A DNA stretch of 40,764 nucleotides from Flavobacteriaceae bacterium (GTDB lineage Bacteria > Bacteroidota > Bacteroidia > Flavobacteriales > Weeksellaceae). The notes beneath the pieces were generated by a model that saw only the letters and a list, made by a program, of their open reading frames with translations, did no database searches and was not told the DNA's origin. Shown piece after piece: positions 33,699 through 40,764 of this stretch. The position numbers were made by a program, and so were the translations under genes. Each line of letters opens with the position of its first letter. Positions within the stretch are counted from its first letter, which is position 1. The stretch spans positions 1 through 40,764 of the forward strand of contig JAISMV010000060.1 of assembly GCA_031276535.1 (NCBI GenBank). The letters are read 5' to 3'.

Positions 33699-35072
33699 AT
33701 GGATATAAACAGGCTATTTTCCGATAAACGTACCGGACCCCAATATAAATCAGCAAGCGAAAGAACGGATCCAAGGAGCGAATATCAACGAGATTTTGAC
33801 CGAGTGATCTTTTCTACGGCATTTCGGAGATTACAAAATAAAACCCAGGTTTTCCCCCTTCCCGGAAGTGTCTTTGTTCATAACCGATTGACACACTCAC
33901 TGGAAGTTGCTTCCGTAGGGCGTTCTCTGGGAAATGAAATAGGAAATTACATCGCGGAAGAATATGCTTCTGAACTGACAAAGGAAAATAAGGAATTATA
34001 TCAGCACAGCTTATATAATGTGATTTCCTCCGGATGTTTATGTCACGATATTGGAAATCCTGCTTTCGGACATTCGGGAGAAGACGCCATAGCCAGTTAT
34101 TTTCACCGGAACGAATCTCTGTTAAAAGACCGGTTTTCATCCAAAGAATGGCAGGATTTTATCAATTTTGAAGGGAATGCCAATGCTTTGCGGATACTGA
34201 CACAACAACAAAACGGAAAATCGGAAGGAGGAGTCATGCTTACTTATTCCACACTGGCTTCCATAATTAAATATCCCTGCGAATCCATAGCAAAAGATAA
34301 AAAAATAGTACAAAGAAAGAAGTTTGGTTTTTTTCAGTCGGAAAAAAACACCTTTCAGGATATAGCACAAGAAACATCCATGTTTCTGGAACAAGAAGAT
34401 CCGTTAATTTACCTCCGTCATCCTTTTGTATGGCTGGTAGAAGTGGCTGACGACATTTGTTATAACATCATAGATTTGGAAGACGCCCAGCGTTTAGGTT
34501 TTATCGGCTCTCAGATCTGCGAAGATTTACTGCAACAGATTATCACGGAAATACACGGCAACGACAAATGGAAACGGGTGGAGAAAAAGTTGGACAGCAT
34601 AGACGATAAGAACGACCGAATTTCATTCCTGAGAGCGGTATCCATAGGAACGTTGATTTCGAGATCTGTAGAATTGTACAAACAAAACTTTGAAAAAATC
34701 CTTTCCGGAATTCTGGATGTTTCCATTTTCGAACAGATAAAAATGGAATGTAATGCCATTCGTACCATTGAAGATTTTTCCATAGAGCATATTTATAACC
34801 ACCGTTCGGTAGTTGAAATAGAAAATGCAGGCTACAATGTTATGTATGAGTTACTGGATCATTTTATCATTCCGATAATAAAATCCAAAGAAGAACGCAA
34901 GGAATATGAAAAAAAAGCAATAAAACTAATTCCGAAACAATTTTTGTATGAAGATAAAAGCGAATATGAAAGAGTTTTGGGGGTATTGGATTTCGTTTCC
35001 GGAATGACGGATAACTATGCCACTGATCTATACAAAAAAATTAAAGGAATTGATATTGGAATGACATTGTAG
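33699..35072 (+). CDS. dgt: Deoxyguanosinetriphosphate triphosphohydrolase (dGTPase)
   Basis: dGTPase-type HD enzymes cut dNTPs to deoxynucleoside and triphosphate, affecting nucleotide pools and phage defence. The 457-aa product has the family start YQRDFDRVIFSTAFRRLQNKTQVFP. The HD metal site is visible: His66 in HNRLTHSLEV, His116-Asp117 in CLCHDIGNPAFGHSGED, and a later Asp in EVADDICYNIIDLEDA. ATG 33699 is chosen because the upstream promoter lies inside the longer alternative. It is a single gene. Confidence 0.94.
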   Translation: MDINRLFSDKRTGPQYKSASERTDPRSEYQRDFDRVIFSTAFRRLQNKTQVFPLPGSVFVHNRLTHSLEVASVGRSLGNEIGNYIAEEYASELTKENKELYQHSLYNVISSGCLCHDIGNPAFGHSGEDAIASYFHRNESLLKDRFSSKEWQDFINFEGNANALRILTQQQNGKSEGGVMLTYSTLASIIKYPCESIAKDKKIVQRKKFGFFQSEKNTFQDIAQETSMFLEQEDPLIYLRHPFVWLVEVADDICYNIIDLEDAQRLGFIGSQICEDLLQQIITEIHGNDKWKRVEKKLDSIDDKNDRISFLRAVSIGTLISRSVELYKQNFEKILSGILDVSIFEQIKMECNAIRTIEDFSIEHIYNHRSVVEIENAGYNVMYELLDHFIIPIIKSKEERKEYEKKAIKLIPKQFLYEDKSEYERVLGVLDFVSGMTDNYATDLYKKIKGIDIGMTL

Positions 35073-35233: not shown

Positions 35234-36250
35234 TCAAAGTTTCGGACGAAACTTCTTATAGTTGAAATTTTTTGATACAACCACTTTCCCCTCATCGGTA
35301 ATTATTATACAACTATAATCCGGATATTTATTGATTAGATCCAGTCCTGCTTTTTTTCCCAATACCATCAACGAAGTACTGAAACCGTTCGCCGTTTCAG
35401 CGCTGGGTCCGAAAACCGTAACACTGCAAAGACCAGTTGCCGGATACCCCGTTACGGGGTTAATGATATGAGAATAGCGTTTTCCGTTGAAAACAACAAA
35501 TTTTTCATAGCTTCCCGATGTAGTTACAGCCCCTTGGCGTAAGGGAACCACAGCAACAAGCTTATCGGTATCAAAAGGGTTGGTAATGCCTATATTCCAG
35601 TCCTTGCCATCGGGCTGTGTCCCCCAGGTGCTCATATCTCCCGAACCGTTTACAATCCCGGACTTAACCCCTTTAGCTATCATCATGTCACGGCATTTGT
35701 CCGCCGCATAGCCTTCACCTAAAGCTCCAAATCCGATTTTCATCCCTTTTAGTTTCAGGAAAATAGTTGATTGAATACTATCTAATACGATATTTTTATA
35801 TCCGACCTTTTCTACTGATCTTTTAATTTCTTCAGGAGTAGGCATCGTGGTCATAGAACCGTCGAACTTCCATATTCTGTCCATTGCAGCAAAGCTTATA
35901 TCAAAAGCTCCGTGGGTGATTTCAGAAAAATACAACGCCCTTTTAGTCAATTCAAAAACTTCCCTGTCCACTTTTACAGGACGAATACCCGCATTTCTAT
36001 TCACCTCGGATACCTGAGAATCAGGCTTCCAATCCGAAATTAAATTTTCTATACGCGTAATTTCCGCTATGATCGTATCAATGTGGCGTTCTGCCGACAA
36101 CGAATCCCCTGCCACGACAGTTATATCAAACCGCCCGCCCATCAGCAACGTTGTCTTTTTTCGCAAGGTCTGCCCCATACAGAGTAATCCGTATAAAAAC
36201 AGAACCACGGTAACAGACGCCTTTGAATAAAAAATGTATCTTCCCGACAT
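35234..36250 (-). CDS. apbE: FAD:protein FMN transferase (ApbE family)
   Basis: ApbE covalently attaches FMN from FAD to Ser/Thr of exported proteins. The 338-aa product has an N-terminal hydrophobic signal, so it should act in the periplasm. Family motifs are LMGGRFDITV, IENLISDWKPDSQVSEVNRNAG, GALGEGYAADK, VNGSGDMSTWG, TTSGSYEKF and SHIINPVTGYP. The usual Lys in the AxGxGYAxDK-like segment is Glu. ATG 36250 is preferred over 36280, which would overlap the upstream gene by 14 bp. It is the last gene of the redox operon, 16 bp after the PepSY reductase. The DUF2271 protein is a plausible substrate. Confidence 0.93.
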   Translation of the reverse strand: MSGRYIFYSKASVTVVLFLYGLLCMGQTLRKKTTLLMGGRFDITVVAGDSLSAERHIDTIIAEITRIENLISDWKPDSQVSEVNRNAGIRPVKVDREVFELTKRALYFSEITHGAFDISFAAMDRIWKFDGSMTTMPTPEEIKRSVEKVGYKNIVLDSIQSTIFLKLKGMKIGFGALGEGYAADKCRDMMIAKGVKSGIVNGSGDMSTWGTQPDGKDWNIGITNPFDTDKLVAVVPLRQGAVTTSGSYEKFVVFNGKRYSHIINPVTGYPATGLCSVTVFGPSAETANGFSTSLMVLGKKAGLDLINKYPDYSCIIITDEGKVVVSKNFNYKKFRPKL

Positions 36251-36266
36251 ATTGTACAAATTTACA

Positions 36267-38468
36267 TCAATAACAGTCAATAAGTATTTGTCCTTTGGAT
36301 TTATAATATGCTATTCCGTTGCCGTTTTTTTCCATGCAGATTGCATCTAAAACGGTTTCTACATCCTGCTGCATAGCCCGTGAACCACAAATCATCAGCA
36401 TTCCTCCCCGTTGCAGCAAATGAGAAAAAAAGTCGGCATCTCTTCGTACCAGATCCATCACATAGCATTGATTGCCTTCACGTGAAAAAGCAATATGAAA
36501 ACTTTTCAGATACTGTTTCCGTACCTGATCTTCCACAAATTTTCCGTGTCGGCGGACTATCTCCGTTTCTTTTCGGAAACCACAATATAAATGACATTCC
36601 GTTTTTTTCTTATTCCCTTCTATCATACCCATGAAAGGAGCTATACCGGTACCGTTGGCGATCATCGCCACTACAGGGGCTTTTTCAGGAAAATGAAATT
36701 CGGCATTACGGATAATGCGCGCTCGGATAACAGATCCCGGCGTAAGTCCGTACAGATAACCGGAACCTAAACCCGAAGGATGCAGCTTCACCACCAGTTG
36801 TATATTACCTTTACTTTTACCGATGGAGTAAAGGCGTTCTCTACCATCACCGGCAGGATAAATCGCCAACAGGTCGCCTGAGGTAAATTTAGCCCTCATA
36901 CCCGGACATATGGTAAGAATGAACGTCTGATCGATATCGTCAACAGCCGTTTTTTCCAGCACTGTCATTTTTTGCAGGTTCGCCGGTTTTTTACCGTACA
37001 ATGCAGGAACCGTAACCAGCGGGATCTCCGTCTTCCTGCTCCAGGCTTTTACCCATTGGATAAATTGTTCGGGTGACTTGTCGCTTACCGTGTATAAATC
37101 CAAAAGTGGATTTGCCCAATCCTGTGCTGCCAGCAATGCGTCCACTTTTCGGGCATATCCGCAAAAATCGGGGTATGCTCTGGAACCAAAGCCCACAACA
37201 GATATATTAACGGTATGTTTTTGCGGATGTTTTTTTATTAGCGATGCCAGCTTGTTTGCGTTGGATGGCGCATCACCCAAGCCGTGTGTAGAAGTAAAGA
37301 CAATGATATGCTCTGCTTTTGGGAAAACCGTATAATTATTTAATTCCGTAAGGTAGGACGTCTGTTTGGCAGAAAGCAACTGTTTGTGTATGGCATCGGC
37401 AAAACGCAGAGTACTGCCGTTTTCAGAACCTGCCAATAAGATAAATTTACTCTCTGACGGCTTGTATTTGTTCTTGATCCTCACTACCCTGCGCCGCAAT
37501 GTAATAGTGAACCCCGAATAAATAAAAAATAAAATGCTGAGAGATGCAACGACCAAAATGACCGCCCATACGATGCTGGTGCGCCCGGTATGCAAATCCA
37601 GACTTAAATTTTCAAGCAGCACGGTTTGGGGATAAACGACTTCACTGAGGATCTCTCCGGTAAACTGGCTGACCTGTATTTCCCGTTCTTTTAGTTTAAG
37701 GGTATAATATTCCTCCGGATCATCCGAAAAAGGAAATTCTATATTTCGTACTTCCGCAAGCGGTGTATTTTTAAATACTGAAAATTCTGCAATATTTTTT
37801 TTATCTGTTATGTCTTCGGAAATTTCCGTATGGGTTTGACGGCTTATTTCGTATTCCGGCAAAAGCTTAAACCTCACCATTGACAGATAGGTGCCGGTAA
37901 GTGCAATGATAACTATGGGTATGAGCAATAACCTCCCCACAACAACATGATAATGTTGTGCGAAATAGTCTTTTATCGTTTTAGAAAAGAACCGGCGTAA
38001 TCCCCGTTGTCTCTGTATCACCAGAATAATTCCCAATCCGGCTATCAACAAGAGCAGAAAAGCAATAATTCCTACAAAAAACCTTCCTGCCTCATGGAGG
38101 AACAGAGAACGATGGAGAGATGTAACCCATTGAATGAACGCGCTTTTCTTTTGAGGTGTTCCCAATATCTTACCTGTCCTCGGGTCAATGCAGGCGTGCA
38201 CATCATTTCCCTCTTTGTCAATTCCTTCCAGTGTCACAAACAAATTATCGTCGACACTTATTTCAATTATTTCCGGATAGGTACTGCTTAAAGCGGATAA
38301 TGTTTCCGATAGTGTTATCTTGTCGAAATCATGTACACGATAGGGCGATATTTTCTCCTTTACCGTATCTGTTGCCAGTATGATACCGGTTATTGAGGCT
38401 AATGCTAAAAAAAGCGAAGAAAACACCGCCAAAACCAAGTGTGTATATCGCCAGACAGAAAGGGTCAT
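36267..38468 (-). CDS. PepSY-membrane/flavodoxin/NADPH-flavin reductase fusion protein
   Basis: This 733-aa inner-membrane electron-transfer protein is fused from three parts. Residues 1-330 are a PepSY_TM unit with four membrane helices and a periplasmic PepSY region; histidines near membrane segments (H10, H119, H125, H172, H174, H293) could bind heme. Residues about 342-475 are a flavodoxin domain (LLAGSENGST, STHGLGDAPSN, VVGFGSRAYPDFCGYA). Residues about 500-733 are a CPR/sulfite-reductase-like FAD/NADP module with RLYSIGKS (FAD), NGTGIAPF (605-612) and ICGS (693-696). It should pass electrons from NAD(P)H through FAD and FMN across the membrane. Related PepSY_TM proteins include the ferrisiderophore reductases FpvG and FoxB. 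Confidence 0.9.
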   Translation of the reverse strand: MTLSVWRYTHLVLAVFSSLFLALASITGIILATDTVKEKISPYRVHDFDKITLSETLSALSSTYPEIIEISVDDNLFVTLEGIDKEGNDVHACIDPRTGKILGTPQKKSAFIQWVTSLHRSLFLHEAGRFFVGIIAFLLLLIAGLGIILVIQRQRGLRRFFSKTIKDYFAQHYHVVVGRLLLIPIVIIALTGTYLSMVRFKLLPEYEISRQTHTEISEDITDKKNIAEFSVFKNTPLAEVRNIEFPFSDDPEEYYTLKLKEREIQVSQFTGEILSEVVYPQTVLLENLSLDLHTGRTSIVWAVILVVASLSILFFIYSGFTITLRRRVVRIKNKYKPSESKFILLAGSENGSTLRFADAIHKQLLSAKQTSYLTELNNYTVFPKAEHIIVFTSTHGLGDAPSNANKLASLIKKHPQKHTVNISVVGFGSRAYPDFCGYARKVDALLAAQDWANPLLDLYTVSDKSPEQFIQWVKAWSRKTEIPLVTVPALYGKKPANLQKMTVLEKTAVDDIDQTFILTICPGMRAKFTSGDLLAIYPAGDGRERLYSIGKSKGNIQLVVKLHPSGLGSGYLYGLTPGSVIRARIIRNAEFHFPEKAPVVAMIANGTGIAPFMGMIEGNKKKTECHLYCGFRKETEIVRRHGKFVEDQVRKQYLKSFHIAFSREGNQCYVMDLVRRDADFFSHLLQRGGMLMICGSRAMQQDVETVLDAICMEKNGNGIAYYKSKGQILIDCY

Positions 38469-38479
38469 AAGATCTTGTG

Positions 38480-38962
38480 CTACGAAATTTTGTTGAGCCT
38501 TACATATCGAATATACCCTTTTCCTTCCGTTTTGCCGGAAAGTCCTTCCGTGGTCAGGGGTATCTCCAGATCGTCCTTATAATAATTCTGGTCTTCCACC
38601 GCCGTTTCAAAGCGCAGCTTATACCCGGTATTGATCTTGGAATCTTCTATTTCAAACAGGGTTACGCTGCGATCACCGCCAGTAACCGAAGCTCCTGTCC
38701 TTGCACTGATGTTTTCAGGTTTTTTGGAATAGAATTTATACCATTCTTTGAGGCTGTTATACCATCTTTTATCACTTCCCATCACGTATACCGTCTTTTC
38801 ATATTTACCTTTCGAATCTATGAGTGATACTACTATATAAGCTCCTTCGCCCATGTAATTGGACATTTGAAGCAAACATTTGTATTTACCGGTCTGTGCG
38901 GATGCCGGTAAAGAAAAAAGACTTATCAATACCCCCATCAGGCATAATCTAAATAACTTCAT
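38480..38962 (-). CDS. DUF2271 periplasmic protein with flavinylation-like motif
   Basis: The 160-aa protein has a signal peptide ending at ASA (about residue 22) and a single beta-rich domain of the DUF2271 type. KRWYNSLKEWYKFYSKKPENI precedes the motif T89-G90-A91-S92-V93-T94. This resembles the [ST]GA[ST]x[ST] site where ApbE attaches FMN, although the usual upstream Asp is Ser86 here. It lies 11 bp before the PepSY reductase gene and 4 bp after the ankyrin gene. I infer that it is the periplasmic, FMN-carrying electron acceptor. The family assignment is by pattern and the flavinylation is untested. Confidence 0.8.
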   Translation of the reverse strand: MKLFRLCLMGVLISLFSLPASAQTGKYKCLLQMSNYMGEGAYIVVSLIDSKGKYEKTVYVMGSDKRWYNSLKEWYKFYSKKPENISARTGASVTGGDRSVTLFEIEDSKINTGYKLRFETAVEDQNYYKDDLEIPLTTEGLSGKTEGKGYIRYVRLNKIS

Positions 38963-38966
38963 ATTA

Positions 38967-40466
38967 CTATTTTAAAAAATCTATGGTTATATTGTTTTTA
39001 GTTAAAAATTCATTTTCTTTTGCCAAATCATATGCGGTCTCGTCAAACTCGGTAAGAATATCTTTTTTAGCACCTATGGATAATAAATATTTCAGGATTT
39101 CGGTGTCTTTAGCTATCATAGCTGCTTTGTGTAAGACCGTAAGCCCTTCATTATTTTTTGCGTTTACGTTAATATTCAGATTTGCTATTTTTTTCAATAA
39201 AGTCAGATCATTTTTGGTGATGGCTACGTGATATAATGTATTTCCGTCTTTTTGAAGGGAAGTAAAGTCTAAGCTTTTATCCTGCAATTTTTTCAACTTA
39301 GCTTCAAAATCTTCTTCTTGTTGAGCATTGTTGGGAGCGCCGGCTCTCAGAGGTCTGTAAGACTGTATCAGATAGTAAGCCAGACTATTTCCTTCCTTGT
39401 CCTTTATCTTTATATCTGCTCCTTTATCTAAAAGTAGAGATACTACATCGGGAGAGCCTTGTTTTACTGCTGCGGTTAACGCGGATTCTCCTTTGGCGTT
39501 TACGGCATTAACGTTTTTTATTTTGGATACCAGAAGTCCTACAATTTCCACCTCTTTGCCTGATGCTGCGTTAATTAATGGGGTATTCCCATCATTATCG
39601 GCTTTATTCACATCTACTCCTTTAGCTAAAAAGTAGTTAACAATTTCGGATTGTTTTTGTCTCCGTACGATCGTATGCAGCACGTTATCTCCATTTTCGC
39701 CGGTAATCGTAGGCTTTATCTTCAGTTCCTCCACCAGATATTGGTATACTTCGATCGGACTTGTACTTCGGCGGGTGCCTTGTGCAGCCATGAGAAGTGC
39801 GTTATCGGTATATTTTACTCCTTTTTTCAAAAGTGTTTTCAACAGTTCCAGATTACCTGCCCTTGCCGCATAGTTAAAGGCTGTGTTTCCGTTGTTGTCA
39901 ACGTCACTCAACGATAGTCCTTTTGATACGAAATAATTGGTAAGGGAAAGGTCTTTATCGCTTGGTATGGCTAGCAAAAGAAGGCTTGCGCCGTCTCTGT
40001 ATTTGCTTTTAACATCAATTCCGGCTTTAAAAAAAGCTTCATATACGGCAACATTGGTCTGTCCGTTTCCTGCAGCAAAAGCAATGGGAGCGATTCCGTG
40101 GCTGTCTTCCAATCTGATATCGGAACCTTTGTCAATCAGGTATTTCACAATTTCCGCGTTCCCTTTACTGGCTGCCCAATGGAGGTAAATACGGTTGTCA
40201 TGCGTAAGTTTACTAATGCTGTTTCCTTTTTGTTCCAATAAAAATTTGATCGTTGCATTGGGCGCATCATTGTTAATAGCCATAGAGGTAGCATCAAAAG
40301 CCATGCCATTGAGTTCTGTCGGGCTGTTGCCTTTTGCTATTTCGGCTTGTACGGCGGCTACGTCAGGTTTTGTTTTCCAGAAATCCTGACTTAAAAGCGT
40401 ATTACCCTGCTGTGCTTTTAGTATAAAAGCCACCAGAGTAAGAGATATAAGAAATATTTTTTTCAT
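38967..40466 (-). CDS. Secreted ankyrin-repeat protein
   Basis: The 499-aa protein has a cleavable signal peptide (MKKIFLISLTLVAFILKAQQ) followed almost entirely by ankyrin repeats. Clear units are IYLHWAASKGNAEIVKYLID, VNKADNDGNTPLINAASGKE, VNAKGESALTAAVKQGSPDV and VNAKNNEGLTVLHKAAMIAK. I count about ten repeats, some degenerate. A periplasmic ankyrin protein should act as a binding scaffold. ATG 40466 is preferred to an in-frame codon at 40493. It is the first gene of the four-gene redox operon, 4 bp before the DUF2271 gene. The partner is unknown. Confidence 0.88.
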   Translation of the reverse strand: MKKIFLISLTLVAFILKAQQGNTLLSQDFWKTKPDVAAVQAEIAKGNSPTELNGMAFDATSMAINNDAPNATIKFLLEQKGNSISKLTHDNRIYLHWAASKGNAEIVKYLIDKGSDIRLEDSHGIAPIAFAAGNGQTNVAVYEAFFKAGIDVKSKYRDGASLLLLAIPSDKDLSLTNYFVSKGLSLSDVDNNGNTAFNYAARAGNLELLKTLLKKGVKYTDNALLMAAQGTRRSTSPIEVYQYLVEELKIKPTITGENGDNVLHTIVRRQKQSEIVNYFLAKGVDVNKADNDGNTPLINAASGKEVEIVGLLVSKIKNVNAVNAKGESALTAAVKQGSPDVVSLLLDKGADIKIKDKEGNSLAYYLIQSYRPLRAGAPNNAQQEEDFEAKLKKLQDKSLDFTSLQKDGNTLYHVAITKNDLTLLKKIANLNINVNAKNNEGLTVLHKAAMIAKDTEILKYLLSIGAKKDILTEFDETAYDLAKENEFLTKNNITIDFLK

Positions 40467-40570
40467 TTGTTTAAATGTATTTATTTTTATCAATTTATAG
40501 GAGATTTTTCGTTAAAATATTGCATTGGATCGGTTTACCAATTAGTAACGGAAATTCTCCATTTATGAAT

Positions 40571-40606
40571 ATAATTCACAAGGTGATGTGAATTATCTGT
40601 GAAAAT
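40571..40606. promoter_or_regulatory. Operator-like cluster of TTCACA/TGTGAA sites
   Basis: ATAATTCACA (40571-40580) and TGTGAATTAT (40587-40596) form a perfect 10-bp inverted repeat around six bases. A third TGTGAA follows as a direct repeat 11 bp after the second (40598-40603). The cluster lies 105-135 bp upstream of the ankyrin gene start and just inside the upstream terminator. Direct repeats at one helical turn are typical of response-regulator sites. The arrangement is the reverse of a CRP site (TGTGA-N6-TCACA). The regulator is unknown. Confidence 0.45.
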
Positions 40607-40609
40607 AAC

Positions 40610-40650
40610 AAAAAACAGCCGGTACGGCAAATACCGGACTGTTTTTATTT
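40610..40650. terminator. Bidirectional intrinsic terminator
   Basis: ACAGCCGGTA and TACCGGaCTGT (40615-40642) form a 10-bp stem with one bulged A and a 7-base loop. It is flanked by five A on the left and TTTTT on the right, so it can act on both strands. It separates the truncated upstream gene from the ankyrin operon. Confidence 0.75.
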
Positions 40651-40664
40651 TTAAATATTTACCG

Positions 40665-40764
40665 TTAGTATGTCAATAATGATACTGCAGAAACTTTTGC
40701 CGCCTCTACAACCAATCCGGCTTTTGCCGTTGCGGTTTTTGGATCTATCACATAGATGGTAGGG
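40665..40764 (-). CDS. C-terminal end of a protein, possibly DUF4374/XusB-like (cut by window edge)
   Basis: An open frame enters from the window edge and ends at TAA (40665-40667). The visible 32 residues begin PTIYVIDPKTATAKAGLVVE and end KVSAVSLLTY. The pattern (IYVIDPKT...KAGLVVE...ISA-like...LTY) recalls the C-terminus of DUF4374 beta-propeller proteins such as XusB, a siderophore-binding lipoprotein partnered with a PepSY protein in Bacteroides. The neighbouring PepSY operon supports this, but 32 residues are too few for certainty. Confidence 0.5.
   Translation of the reverse strand, partial: PTIYVIDPKTATAKAGLVVEAAKVSAVSLLTY

What the first reader, a model, noticed from the sequence alone, without database searches (positions are those of the whole stretch)
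35234..40764. Predicted transmembrane flavin electron-transfer operon with a secreted ankyrin protein
Four tightly packed genes encode, in order, a secreted ankyrin-repeat protein, a DUF2271 protein, a PepSY-membrane/flavodoxin/FAD-NADP reductase fusion and ApbE (gaps of 4, 11 and 16 bp). Together they suggest one route: NAD(P)H to FAD to FMN in one chain, across the membrane, then to a periplasmic flavinylated carrier loaded by ApbE. PepSY_TM proteins FpvG and FoxB reduce ferric siderophores, which suggests iron as the end use. The role of the ankyrin protein, perhaps as docking scaffold for the redox partners, has no explanation that I know of.
Basis: partly seen in the sequence, partly recalled or inferred. 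Interest (0 to 1): 0.75.

Follow-up and report, generated by a model that had tools for sequence, protein, structure and literature searches.

The report
Iron-scavenging flavin reductase with ankyrin partner
This looks like the inner half of a bacterial system for taking iron from siderophores: it should move electrons across the membrane to free the iron, and it comes with a secreted ankyrin protein whose job has not been described.

Summary
The four genes are real and as described (minus strand, gaps 4, 11, 16 bp): a secreted ankyrin-repeat protein (ANK), DUF2271 with an intact flavinylation motif, a FoxB-like PepSY protein fused to a diflavin reductase, and ApbE. The gene cut by the contig end is a DUF4374 (XusB-family) C-terminus; another contig of the assembly carries a XusA-like receptor and a DUF4374 N-terminus. 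So this is probably the inner half of a Xus-type siderophore locus. The matching Riemerella operon is up under iron limitation in two published datasets, and Fur binds its receptor promoter in one strain. DUF2271/PepSY/ApbE clusters and Xus are known. Not found in print: the ankyrin subunit. In 395 Bacteroidota genomes, ANK and the PepSY-diflavin fusion occur in the same 28; ANK adjoins DUF2271 in 27 (contig break in the last). The cassette looks horizontally acquired here. Best reading: an NAD(P)H-driven, haem-wired periplasmic ferric-siderophore reductase with a flavinylated carrier, ANK being its docking subunit. The ankyrin role and the electron route are inference; the rest rests on homology, synteny and published regulation.

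The parts
38967..40466 (-). ANK: secreted ankyrin-repeat protein, 499 aa (an upstream TTG at 40493 is an alternative start)
   Evidence: translation; Pfam Ank_2 183.5 bits; AlphaFold2 mean pLDDT 91.1, helical throughout; signal-like N-terminus read from the sequence (no signal-peptide program run)
38480..38962 (-). DUF2271 periplasmic protein, 160 aa, predicted ApbE substrate
   Evidence: PF10029 121.3 bits (cut-off 27.3); only DUF2271 match in the own assembly
38687..38698 (-). flavinylation motif TGAS (residues 89-92) in DUF2271; acceptor probably Ser92 (acceptor position recalled, not from a call)
   Evidence: [ST]GA[ST] in 106 of 108 DUF2271 homologues; motif and flavinylation shown for another DUF2271 in PMC8238504 (passages)
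36267..38468 (-). PepSY_TM - flavodoxin - FNR fusion, 733 aa: transmembrane diflavin reductase
   Evidence: PF03929, PF00258, PF00175; FoxB 7abw E 2.4e-6; diflavin reductases
37470..38468 (-). membrane half: four predicted membrane helices, two PepSY domains, invariant His10, His119, His174, His293 (predicted ligands of two haems)
37029..37445 (-). flavodoxin domain (FMN), residues 342-480
36270..36989 (-). FNR domain (FAD, NAD(P)H), residues 494-733, with RLYS and GTGIAPF motifs and C-terminal Tyr (motif names recalled)
35234..36250 (-). ApbE FAD:protein FMN transferase, 338 aa
   Evidence: PF02424 275.1 bits; FAD:protein FMN transferase 7esa E 4.1e-42 (best hit 1vrm, an unnamed relative, 1.7e-43); only ApbE match in the own assembly
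40619..40637 (-). terminator-like hairpin with T-run between the DUF4374 gene and ank
   Evidence: 9 such sites in the region, 5.6 expected by shuffling, so weak as a class
40665..40763 (-). last 32 codons and stop of a DUF4374 (XusB-family) gene cut by the contig end
   Evidence: aligned with C-termini of L017, L018 and L021 proteins, which are DUF4374 by Pfam in L018 and by similarity in the others

Best explanation
The four genes encode the inner-membrane and periplasmic half of a Xus-type (xeno)siderophore-iron uptake locus. NAD(P)H reduces FAD, then FMN, in the cytosolic diflavin part of the PepSY fusion. Two haems held by four invariant histidines carry the electrons across the membrane. 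In the periplasm they pass to FMN covalently attached to DUF2271 by ApbE, which reduces Fe(III)-siderophore brought in by the XusA/XusB-like outer-membrane pair and so frees Fe(II). The ankyrin protein is a dedicated, non-redox periplasmic subunit that docks DUF2271 to the PepSY protein (or to the incoming ligand). Shown here: gene content, conserved order, family membership, motifs, co-occurrence. In print for the matching Riemerella operon: rise under iron limitation and Fur binding at the receptor promoter. Inferred: electron route, substrate, and the docking role of ANK.
For: Families and motifs. FoxB homology and four histidines invariant in 103 of 103 fusions of at least 690 aa. Own assembly: one ApbE, one DUF2271 (9), no FMN_bind match, so DUF2271 is the evident ApbE substrate. 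Contig C135 of the own assembly ends in a TonB receptor matching XusA 9gbc_A at E 4.5e-209 and the first 276 residues of a DUF4374 protein matching XusB 9gbc_B at 2.4e-18; 9GBC is XusAB. In three congeners (L018, L019, L021) receptor, two DUF4374-like genes, ANK, DUF2271, PepSY and ApbE stand in one row, in L017 with two small genes in between. Riemerella: both published RT-PCR primers for the iron-responsive apbE gene RAYM_04506 fall, convergent, in the ApbE gene of this operon; operon genes are up in iron limitation and Fur binds the receptor promoter in strain CH-1. ANK is in the same 28 of 395 genomes as the PepSY-diflavin fusion; the window ANK has no Cys (4).
Against: No binding, redox or growth data for this ankyrin protein. 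Covariation ANK-DUF2271 was only slightly above the cytosolic FNR control (2.61 against 1.84 per mille of pairs over z 4; 102 pairs, Neff 38), and ANK-PepSY periplasmic domains were below it (1.19, 0.86). One operon (L127) keeps ANK and PepSY although its DUF2271 lost the motif, so the flavin on DUF2271 is not needed everywhere. A XusA-like receptor is near only 23 of 66 testable named loci and 8 of 24 others, and the congener L020 has none next to its operon. The XusA/B genes of the own genome are on another contig, so their linkage is inferred. In Riemerella YM the operon genes are in the iron table but, by the locus-tag counts, not in the Fur table, in tension with the CH-1 Fur result.
Confidence: 0.62

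Rival explanations
1. Same reductase, but the ankyrin protein is a maturation factor: it delivers or inserts haem into the di-haem PepSY protein, as ankyrin proteins are reported to do for catalases (AnkB of Pseudomonas, Cj1386 of Campylobacter).
For: Ankyrin proteins required for catalase activity, probably through haem binding, are cited in PMC7567364 (passages; the two primary papers were not held). The PepSY half has four invariant histidines. ANK goes with the PepSY-diflavin fusion, also where ApbE is not adjacent. His89 of ANK is 99% conserved and does not sit at the usual structural His of a repeat (my reading of the sequence).
Against: None of the four operon genes is a catalase. The HiuB siderophore-reductase paper (preprint version, search listing) does not contain the word ankyrin, so such PepSY proteins can mature without one. 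Other conserved His in ANK (96, 264, 413, 446) sit at the structural position (my reading).
Confidence: 0.17
2. The metal or acceptor is not siderophore iron but copper or another periplasmic oxidant; the system is a general periplasmic reductase.
For: A PepSY_TM protein supporting heme-copper oxidoreductase function is in print (CrpH; title and start of abstract in the search listing only). Many loci have no XusA-like receptor nearby.
Against: XusA/XusB-like genes in the own assembly and in four congeners; iron regulation in Riemerella.
Confidence: 0.12
3. The ankyrin protein binds the siderophore or the XusB-like lipoprotein and hands the ligand to the reductase: a substrate-side adaptor rather than a redox-partner scaffold.
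For: Where the receptor and lipoprotein genes precede the unit, ANK is the next gene in L018, L019, L021 and L111. ANK has strongly conserved blocks at residues 81-100 (0.79) and 441-480 (0.78, 0.76).
Against: Co-occurrence is tight with DUF2271/PepSY (28 of 28) and loose with XusA-like receptors (23 of 66 named, 8 of 24 others).
Confidence: 0.15
4. The ankyrin gene is an unrelated hitch-hiker, or the linkage is an accident of close kinship.
For: Most of the 80 best named loci are Flavobacterium, so counts are not independent.
Against: The 28 genomes with ANK and fusion fall in 12 genera of 171 sampled, with varied flanks in those read, and the genes seem to have stayed together through a horizontal transfer into this genome.
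Confidence: 0.03

Closest known systems
PepSY-like flavinylation gene clusters with DUF2271 and ApbE (2021, PMC8238504)
   Same: PepSY-like membrane protein, DUF2271 with [ST]GA[ST], ApbE; a subset of PepSY proteins with an NAD-binding domain; iron reduction proposed (passages)
   Different: Their frequent secreted partner is DUF4198; here it is an ankyrin protein. The word ankyrin does not occur in the main text (its supplementary tables were not looked at). Here the PepSY chain carries both flavodoxin and FNR.
XusABC xenosiderophore utilisation system of Bacteroides (PMC13142918)
   Same: XusA-like TonB receptor and XusB-like DUF4374 lipoprotein with a PepSY inner-membrane protein
   Different: XusC is described as a PepSY domain protein and reductase (passages); no diflavin fusion, DUF2271, ApbE or ankyrin protein in the passages read.
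FoxB of Pseudomonas aeruginosa (PDB 7abw) and HiuB of Caulobacter
   Same: PepSY membrane proteins with haem histidines and a link to siderophore reduction
   Different: Here fused to its own NAD(P)H diflavin reductase and paired with a predicted flavinylated periplasmic carrier.
CysJ / NADPH-cytochrome P450 reductase / NOS reductase
   Same: Flavodoxin + FNR tandem
   Different: Fused to a haem-binding type of membrane domain; NCBIfam CysJ cut-off not reached (103.5 of 668.15 bits).
AnkB (Pseudomonas) and Cj1386 (Campylobacter) ankyrin proteins
   Same: Bacterial ankyrin protein linked with a haem protein (cited in PMC7567364)
   Different: Their partner is a catalase, here a membrane reductase; sequence relation not tested.

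Membership tests
PepSY-like flavinylation cluster (DUF2271 type) | PepSY-like protein (PF03929) in the cluster | tested here: met
   117.4 bits, cut-off 28.8
PepSY-like flavinylation cluster (DUF2271 type) | DUF2271 with [ST]GA[ST] in a cluster with ApbE | tested here: met
PepSY-like flavinylation cluster (DUF2271 type) | covalent FMN on DUF2271 | not testable with these tools
   needs co-expression with ApbE
FoxB-type PepSY siderophore reductase | sequence relation to FoxB over the membrane half | tested here: met
   profile of 26 halves, 7abw E 2.4e-6 (single-sequence phmmer did not list it)
FoxB-type PepSY siderophore reductase | four haem-ligand histidines | tested here: met
   invariant in 103 of 103 and aligned with FoxB His; the fourth lies in a stretch that does not score on its own (0.9 bits). 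That FoxB has two haems with conserved His ligands is from passages
FoxB-type PepSY siderophore reductase | FoxB fold by structure comparison | tested here: inconclusive
   rows are filled by the diflavin half; the membrane half was barely tested
FoxB-type PepSY siderophore reductase | ferric-siderophore reductase activity | not testable with these tools
   biochemistry
Xus system | XusA-like TonB receptor | tested here: met
   E 4.5e-209, on another contig of the same assembly
Xus system | XusB-like DUF4374 lipoprotein | tested here: met
   (on C135); C-terminal fragment in the window
Xus system | receptor, lipoprotein and PepSY gene adjacent in this genome | tested here: inconclusive
   contig break between C135 and the window; in one row in L018, L019, L021, with two small genes between in L017, absent next to the operon in L020
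Xus system | use of a siderophore | not testable with these tools
   growth assay needed
Diflavin reductase (CPR/CysJ/NOS type) | tandem FMN flavodoxin and FAD/NADP FNR modules | tested here: met
AnkB/Cj1386-like catalase ankyrin proteins | gene beside a catalase gene | tested here: not met
   none of the four operon genes is a catalase; most flanking genes in relatives were not annotated
AnkB/Cj1386-like catalase ankyrin proteins | haem binding | not testable with these tools
   biochemistry

The most novel reading that the evidence does not exclude
ANK is a long periplasmic arm that holds flavinylated DUF2271 within reach of both the inner-membrane PepSY haems and the outer-membrane receptor, so that the siderophore is reduced as it enters: a protein-scaffolded, flavin-based electron bridge across the periplasm, and to my knowledge the first periplasmic ankyrin scaffold for electron transfer.
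Probability: 0.13. Interest if true: 0.8.

Novelty: new variant of a known kind. Interest (0 to 1): 0.52.

Why it matters
It ties together two lines of work that the passages read here do not connect, Xus siderophore piracy and extracytosolic flavinylation. In the Bacteroidota genomes surveyed the PepSY-diflavin reductase was not found without a secreted ankyrin protein that has no described role (28 of 28). Published iron-limitation tables already list these genes under labels such as 'Ankyrin', 'Predicted periplasmic protein' and 'Nitric oxide synthase', so the unit can be tested directly in Flavobacteriia. If the ankyrin protein proves to be a docking subunit, it would be a new kind of part in periplasmic electron transfer.

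Tried and rejected
Covariation between ANK and its putative partners (102 paired sequences, Neff about 38). Per mille of pairs above z 4: ANK-DUF2271 2.61, ANK-PepSY periplasmic domains 1.19 and 0.86, ANK-PepSY membrane part 1.57, and the cytosolic controls flavodoxin 0.96 and FNR 1.84. Too weak to support or reject contact. A first version was killed by the sandbox.

A Riemerella-type Fur box (consensus written by me from the published table) was not found upstream of the operon; its 3 matches in the window, with 3 mismatches each, lie elsewhere and are not above chance (12 of 100 shuffles had as many). The true promoter may lie upstream of the receptor gene, off the window.

Structure comparison of the PepSY fusion: FoxB is not in the rows shown, which the diflavin half fills; the model's membrane half is weaker (block pLDDT 37-84). 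The FoxB relation rests on the profile search. Fold search of ANK gives ankyrin solenoids and DARPins.

ANK as ApbE substrate: rejected ([ST]GA[ST] in 2 of 108 ANK; 0 of 80 named). ANK as a cysteine-based carrier: rejected (no Cys in the window protein; Cys beyond residue 25 in 5 of 80 named). NCBIfam matches of ANK to named ankyrin effectors are far below their cut-offs and are taken as shared repeats.

DUF2271 against solved structures: nothing convincing (best E 0.1).

Literature: the 10 paper searches are. Searches (20 of 24 papers listed; 15 of 61 listed), which joined ankyrin with PepSY, DUF2271, flavinylation or siderophore terms, list no paper that connects them. By locus tag (2 papers) the ankyrin gene itself appears only in the table of PMC5429918; its YM counterpart is 'Hypothetical protein' in PMC5609570 (assigned by order). 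The library lacks most subscription papers, and no supplementary file was read.
Full report
OBSERVATION. The four genes lie on the minus strand in the order ank (40466-38967), DUF2271 (38962-38480), PepSY-flavodoxin-FNR (38468-36267) and apbE (36250-35234), with gaps of 4, 11 and 16 bp. Pfam confirms the names over its cut-offs. ANK, DUF2271 and ApbE begin with signal-like segments without an obvious lipobox; this is read from the sequence, no program was run. A terminator-like hairpin lies between that gene and ank.

PARTS. DUF2271 carries TGAS at residues 89-92. The motif [ST]GA[ST] is present in 106 of 108 homologues collected here (frames kept only if at least 140 aa for DUF2271, 690 for PepSY, 440 for ANK, 290 for ApbE; shorter or cut ones dropped). 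The two without it are L119, a second DUF2271 copy with no ank or PepSY beside it, and L127, an ank-DUF2271-PepSY operon. Flavinylation of a DUF2271 protein at this motif by its cognate ApbE is published (PMC8238504, passages). The own assembly (93.5% complete) has one ApbE, one DUF2271, one PepSY_TM protein and no FMN_bind match, so DUF2271 is the evident ApbE substrate; DUF3570 and NqrB/RnfD were not searched.

THE REDUCTASE. The PepSY fusion is predicted to have four membrane helices, two PepSY domains, then flavodoxin and FNR domains (mean pLDDT 76, membrane half weaker). A profile of 26 membrane halves finds FoxB (7abw) at E 2.4e-6; the only other chain listed has E 2.1. His10, His119, His174 and His293 fall on FoxB histidines, the fourth in a stretch that does not score on its own. 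These four are invariant in 103 of 103 fusions. The C-terminal half is a CysJ/CPR/NOS-type diflavin reductase.

SURROUNDINGS. Elsewhere in the same assembly, contig C135 ends in a TonB receptor gene and the first 276 residues of a DUF4374 protein, preceded by a divergent 328-aa gene where L018 has an AraC-type regulator (Pfam for L018 only). The receptor matches XusA of the XusAB complex (9gbc_A) at E 4.5e-209 and the DUF4374 piece matches XusB (9gbc_B) at 2.4e-18. In congeners L018, L019 and L021 the receptor, two DUF4374-like genes and the four-gene unit stand in one row; in L017 two small genes lie between; in L020 no receptor is next to the unit (Pfam of two DUF4374 and one receptor from L018). 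The likely arrangement here is the same, broken by the assembly; this junction is inferred.

REGULATION IN PRINT. Riemerella anatipestifer CH-1 under iron depletion: B739_0173 TonB receptor 3.31, 0174 hypothetical 3.64, 0175 'Ankyrin' 2.41, 0176 'Predicted periplasmic protein' 3.06, 0177 'Nitric oxide synthase' 1.05 (log2; PMC5429918, passages of Table 2). Strain YM: RAYM_04481 TonB receptor 6.36, 04491 5.24, 04496 3.42, 04501 'Nitric oxide synthase' 2.80, 04506 'ApbE' 1.84 under iron restriction (PMC5609570, passages of Table 3; units not checked; 04486 not listed). By the locus-tag counts none of these is in that paper's Fur table, whereas in CH-1 Fur binds the promoter of B739_0173 and a fur mutant derepresses it (PMC7976709, passages; the same passage says transcript levels were not affected by an added chelator in that medium). 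To test identity by sequence I used the YM paper's RT-PCR primers for RAYM_04506: the forward one matches exactly in 2 of 296 family genomes and with one mismatch in 2 more, and in the two exact genomes both primers lie convergent inside the ApbE gene of receptor - 447-aa protein - ANK - DUF2271 - PepSY - ApbE (the receptor is split in L112).

CO-OCCURRENCE. In 395 Bacteroidota genomes, DUF2271 is over the cut-off in 33, ANK (E at most 1e-40) in 28 and the PepSY-diflavin fusion (E at most 1e-30) in 28. ANK and fusion are in the same 28 genomes, all with DUF2271; none of the 362 genomes without DUF2271 over the cut-off has ANK. Limits: only the best 3 (ANK) or 2 (fusion) candidates per genome were scored, and both profiles were built from ANK operons, so distant fusions could fall below the threshold. 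ANK and DUF2271 matches lie on one strand within 217 bp in 27 of 28; in the last (G560) they are on different contigs near contig ends. I read the neighbourhoods of 15 of the 28 (window, L016 and 13 genomes). The five DUF2271 genomes without ANK: four (G457, G497, G684, G692) have one ~500-aa frame hit by both the ApbE and DUF2271 searches (Pfam-checked in L114 only), and G652 has a lone, more distant DUF2271. ApbE is the loosest member: not adjacent in L120 and L125-L128, whose genomes do encode ApbE elsewhere, and on the opposite strand in L121, L124, L133 and L032. Among the best 80 of 519 named relatives, mostly Flavobacterium, DUF2271 follows in 79 of 79 testable, PepSY in 74 of 75, ApbE (either strand) in 70 of 73; exceptions are L031 (an extra ank-DUF2271 pair), L027 and L060 (no ApbE). 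Species are related, so the counts are not independent; the 28 fall in 12 genera of 171.

TRANSFER. The neighbouring dGTPase-like gene (window 33699-35069; family name recalled) is 78-86% identical to all eight same-genus genomes and 42% to G026 of another family. ANK is instead 63% identical to G026 and 56-60% to the five congeners that have it, ApbE 75% against 58-60%, PepSY 61% against 50-53%; DUF2271 differs little (72% against 66-71%). The PepSY tree puts the window with Chryseosolibacter and a Flavobacterium, not with its congeners. The unit looks horizontally acquired as a whole, ank included; this is inference from these genes only.

THE ANKYRIN PROTEIN. AlphaFold2 gives a confident, all-helical repeat protein (pLDDT 91.1). 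The window protein has no cysteine and [ST]GA[ST] occurs in only 2 of 108, so a redox-carrier role is unlikely. Its best conserved blocks are residues 81-100 (0.79) and 441-480 (0.78, 0.76). Its partnership is tight with DUF2271/PepSY and loose with ApbE (above) or with a receptor type (XusA-like receptor near 23 of 66 testable named loci and 8 of 24 others), which points to the redox pair as its partner. Docking is the simplest reading; haem delivery is the main rival, by analogy with ankyrin proteins needed for catalase activity (PMC7567364, passages). Covariation did not decide.

KNOWN AND NEW. Known: DUF2271/PepSY/ApbE clusters and their proposed link to iron, Xus, PepSY siderophore reductases. 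Not found in the searches listed under Tried and rejected: the ankyrin protein as a constant part, and the joining of XusAB with a flavinylated diflavin PepSY reductase. Verdict: new variant of a known kind, moderately interesting, with one open question: what the ankyrin subunit does.

Noticed in passing
window 35234-40466 against 33699-35069: ANK, PepSY and ApbE are more like Flavobacterium/Chryseosolibacter versions than like those of the same genus, while the next-door housekeeping gene is 78-86% identical to congeners: apparent horizontal acquisition. Operon GC 41.3% against 36.4% for the rest of the window.
   Followed up: partly
L127 8938-9444: An ank-DUF2271-PepSY operon whose DUF2271 has lost the flavinylation motif (VGET in its place) and has no adjacent ApbE, yet keeps ANK.
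   Followed up: partly
L114-L117 (frames of about 500 aa): Single proteins hit by both ApbE and DUF2271 searches (fusion confirmed by Pfam in L114); a small PepSY_TM_like_2 protein follows in L114 and L116; no ANK match in these genomes.
   Followed up: partly
L112 850-4057: The XusA-like receptor of this operon is in two pieces with an opposite-strand ORF between them, as by an insertion; a related genome (L111) has it in one frame.
   Followed up: no
L025 6711-8876: PepSY fusion frame only 463 aa with a 774-bp gap to DUF2271: the membrane half is not in one open frame.
   Followed up: no
L131 86-3048 and L031: Two ankyrin genes in tandem (L131) and, in L031, a second ank-DUF2271 pair without PepSY on the same contig as a full unit.
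   Followed up: no
L130 11330-14910: A separate, non-fused PepSY_TM protein and a TonB receptor lie upstream of ank on the same strand, so two PepSY proteins stand side by side; similar maps in several other named loci.
   Followed up: no
window 40619-40637: Terminator-like hairpin between the DUF4374 gene and ank; with the falling values along the Riemerella YM operon it may mean partial termination.
   Followed up: no
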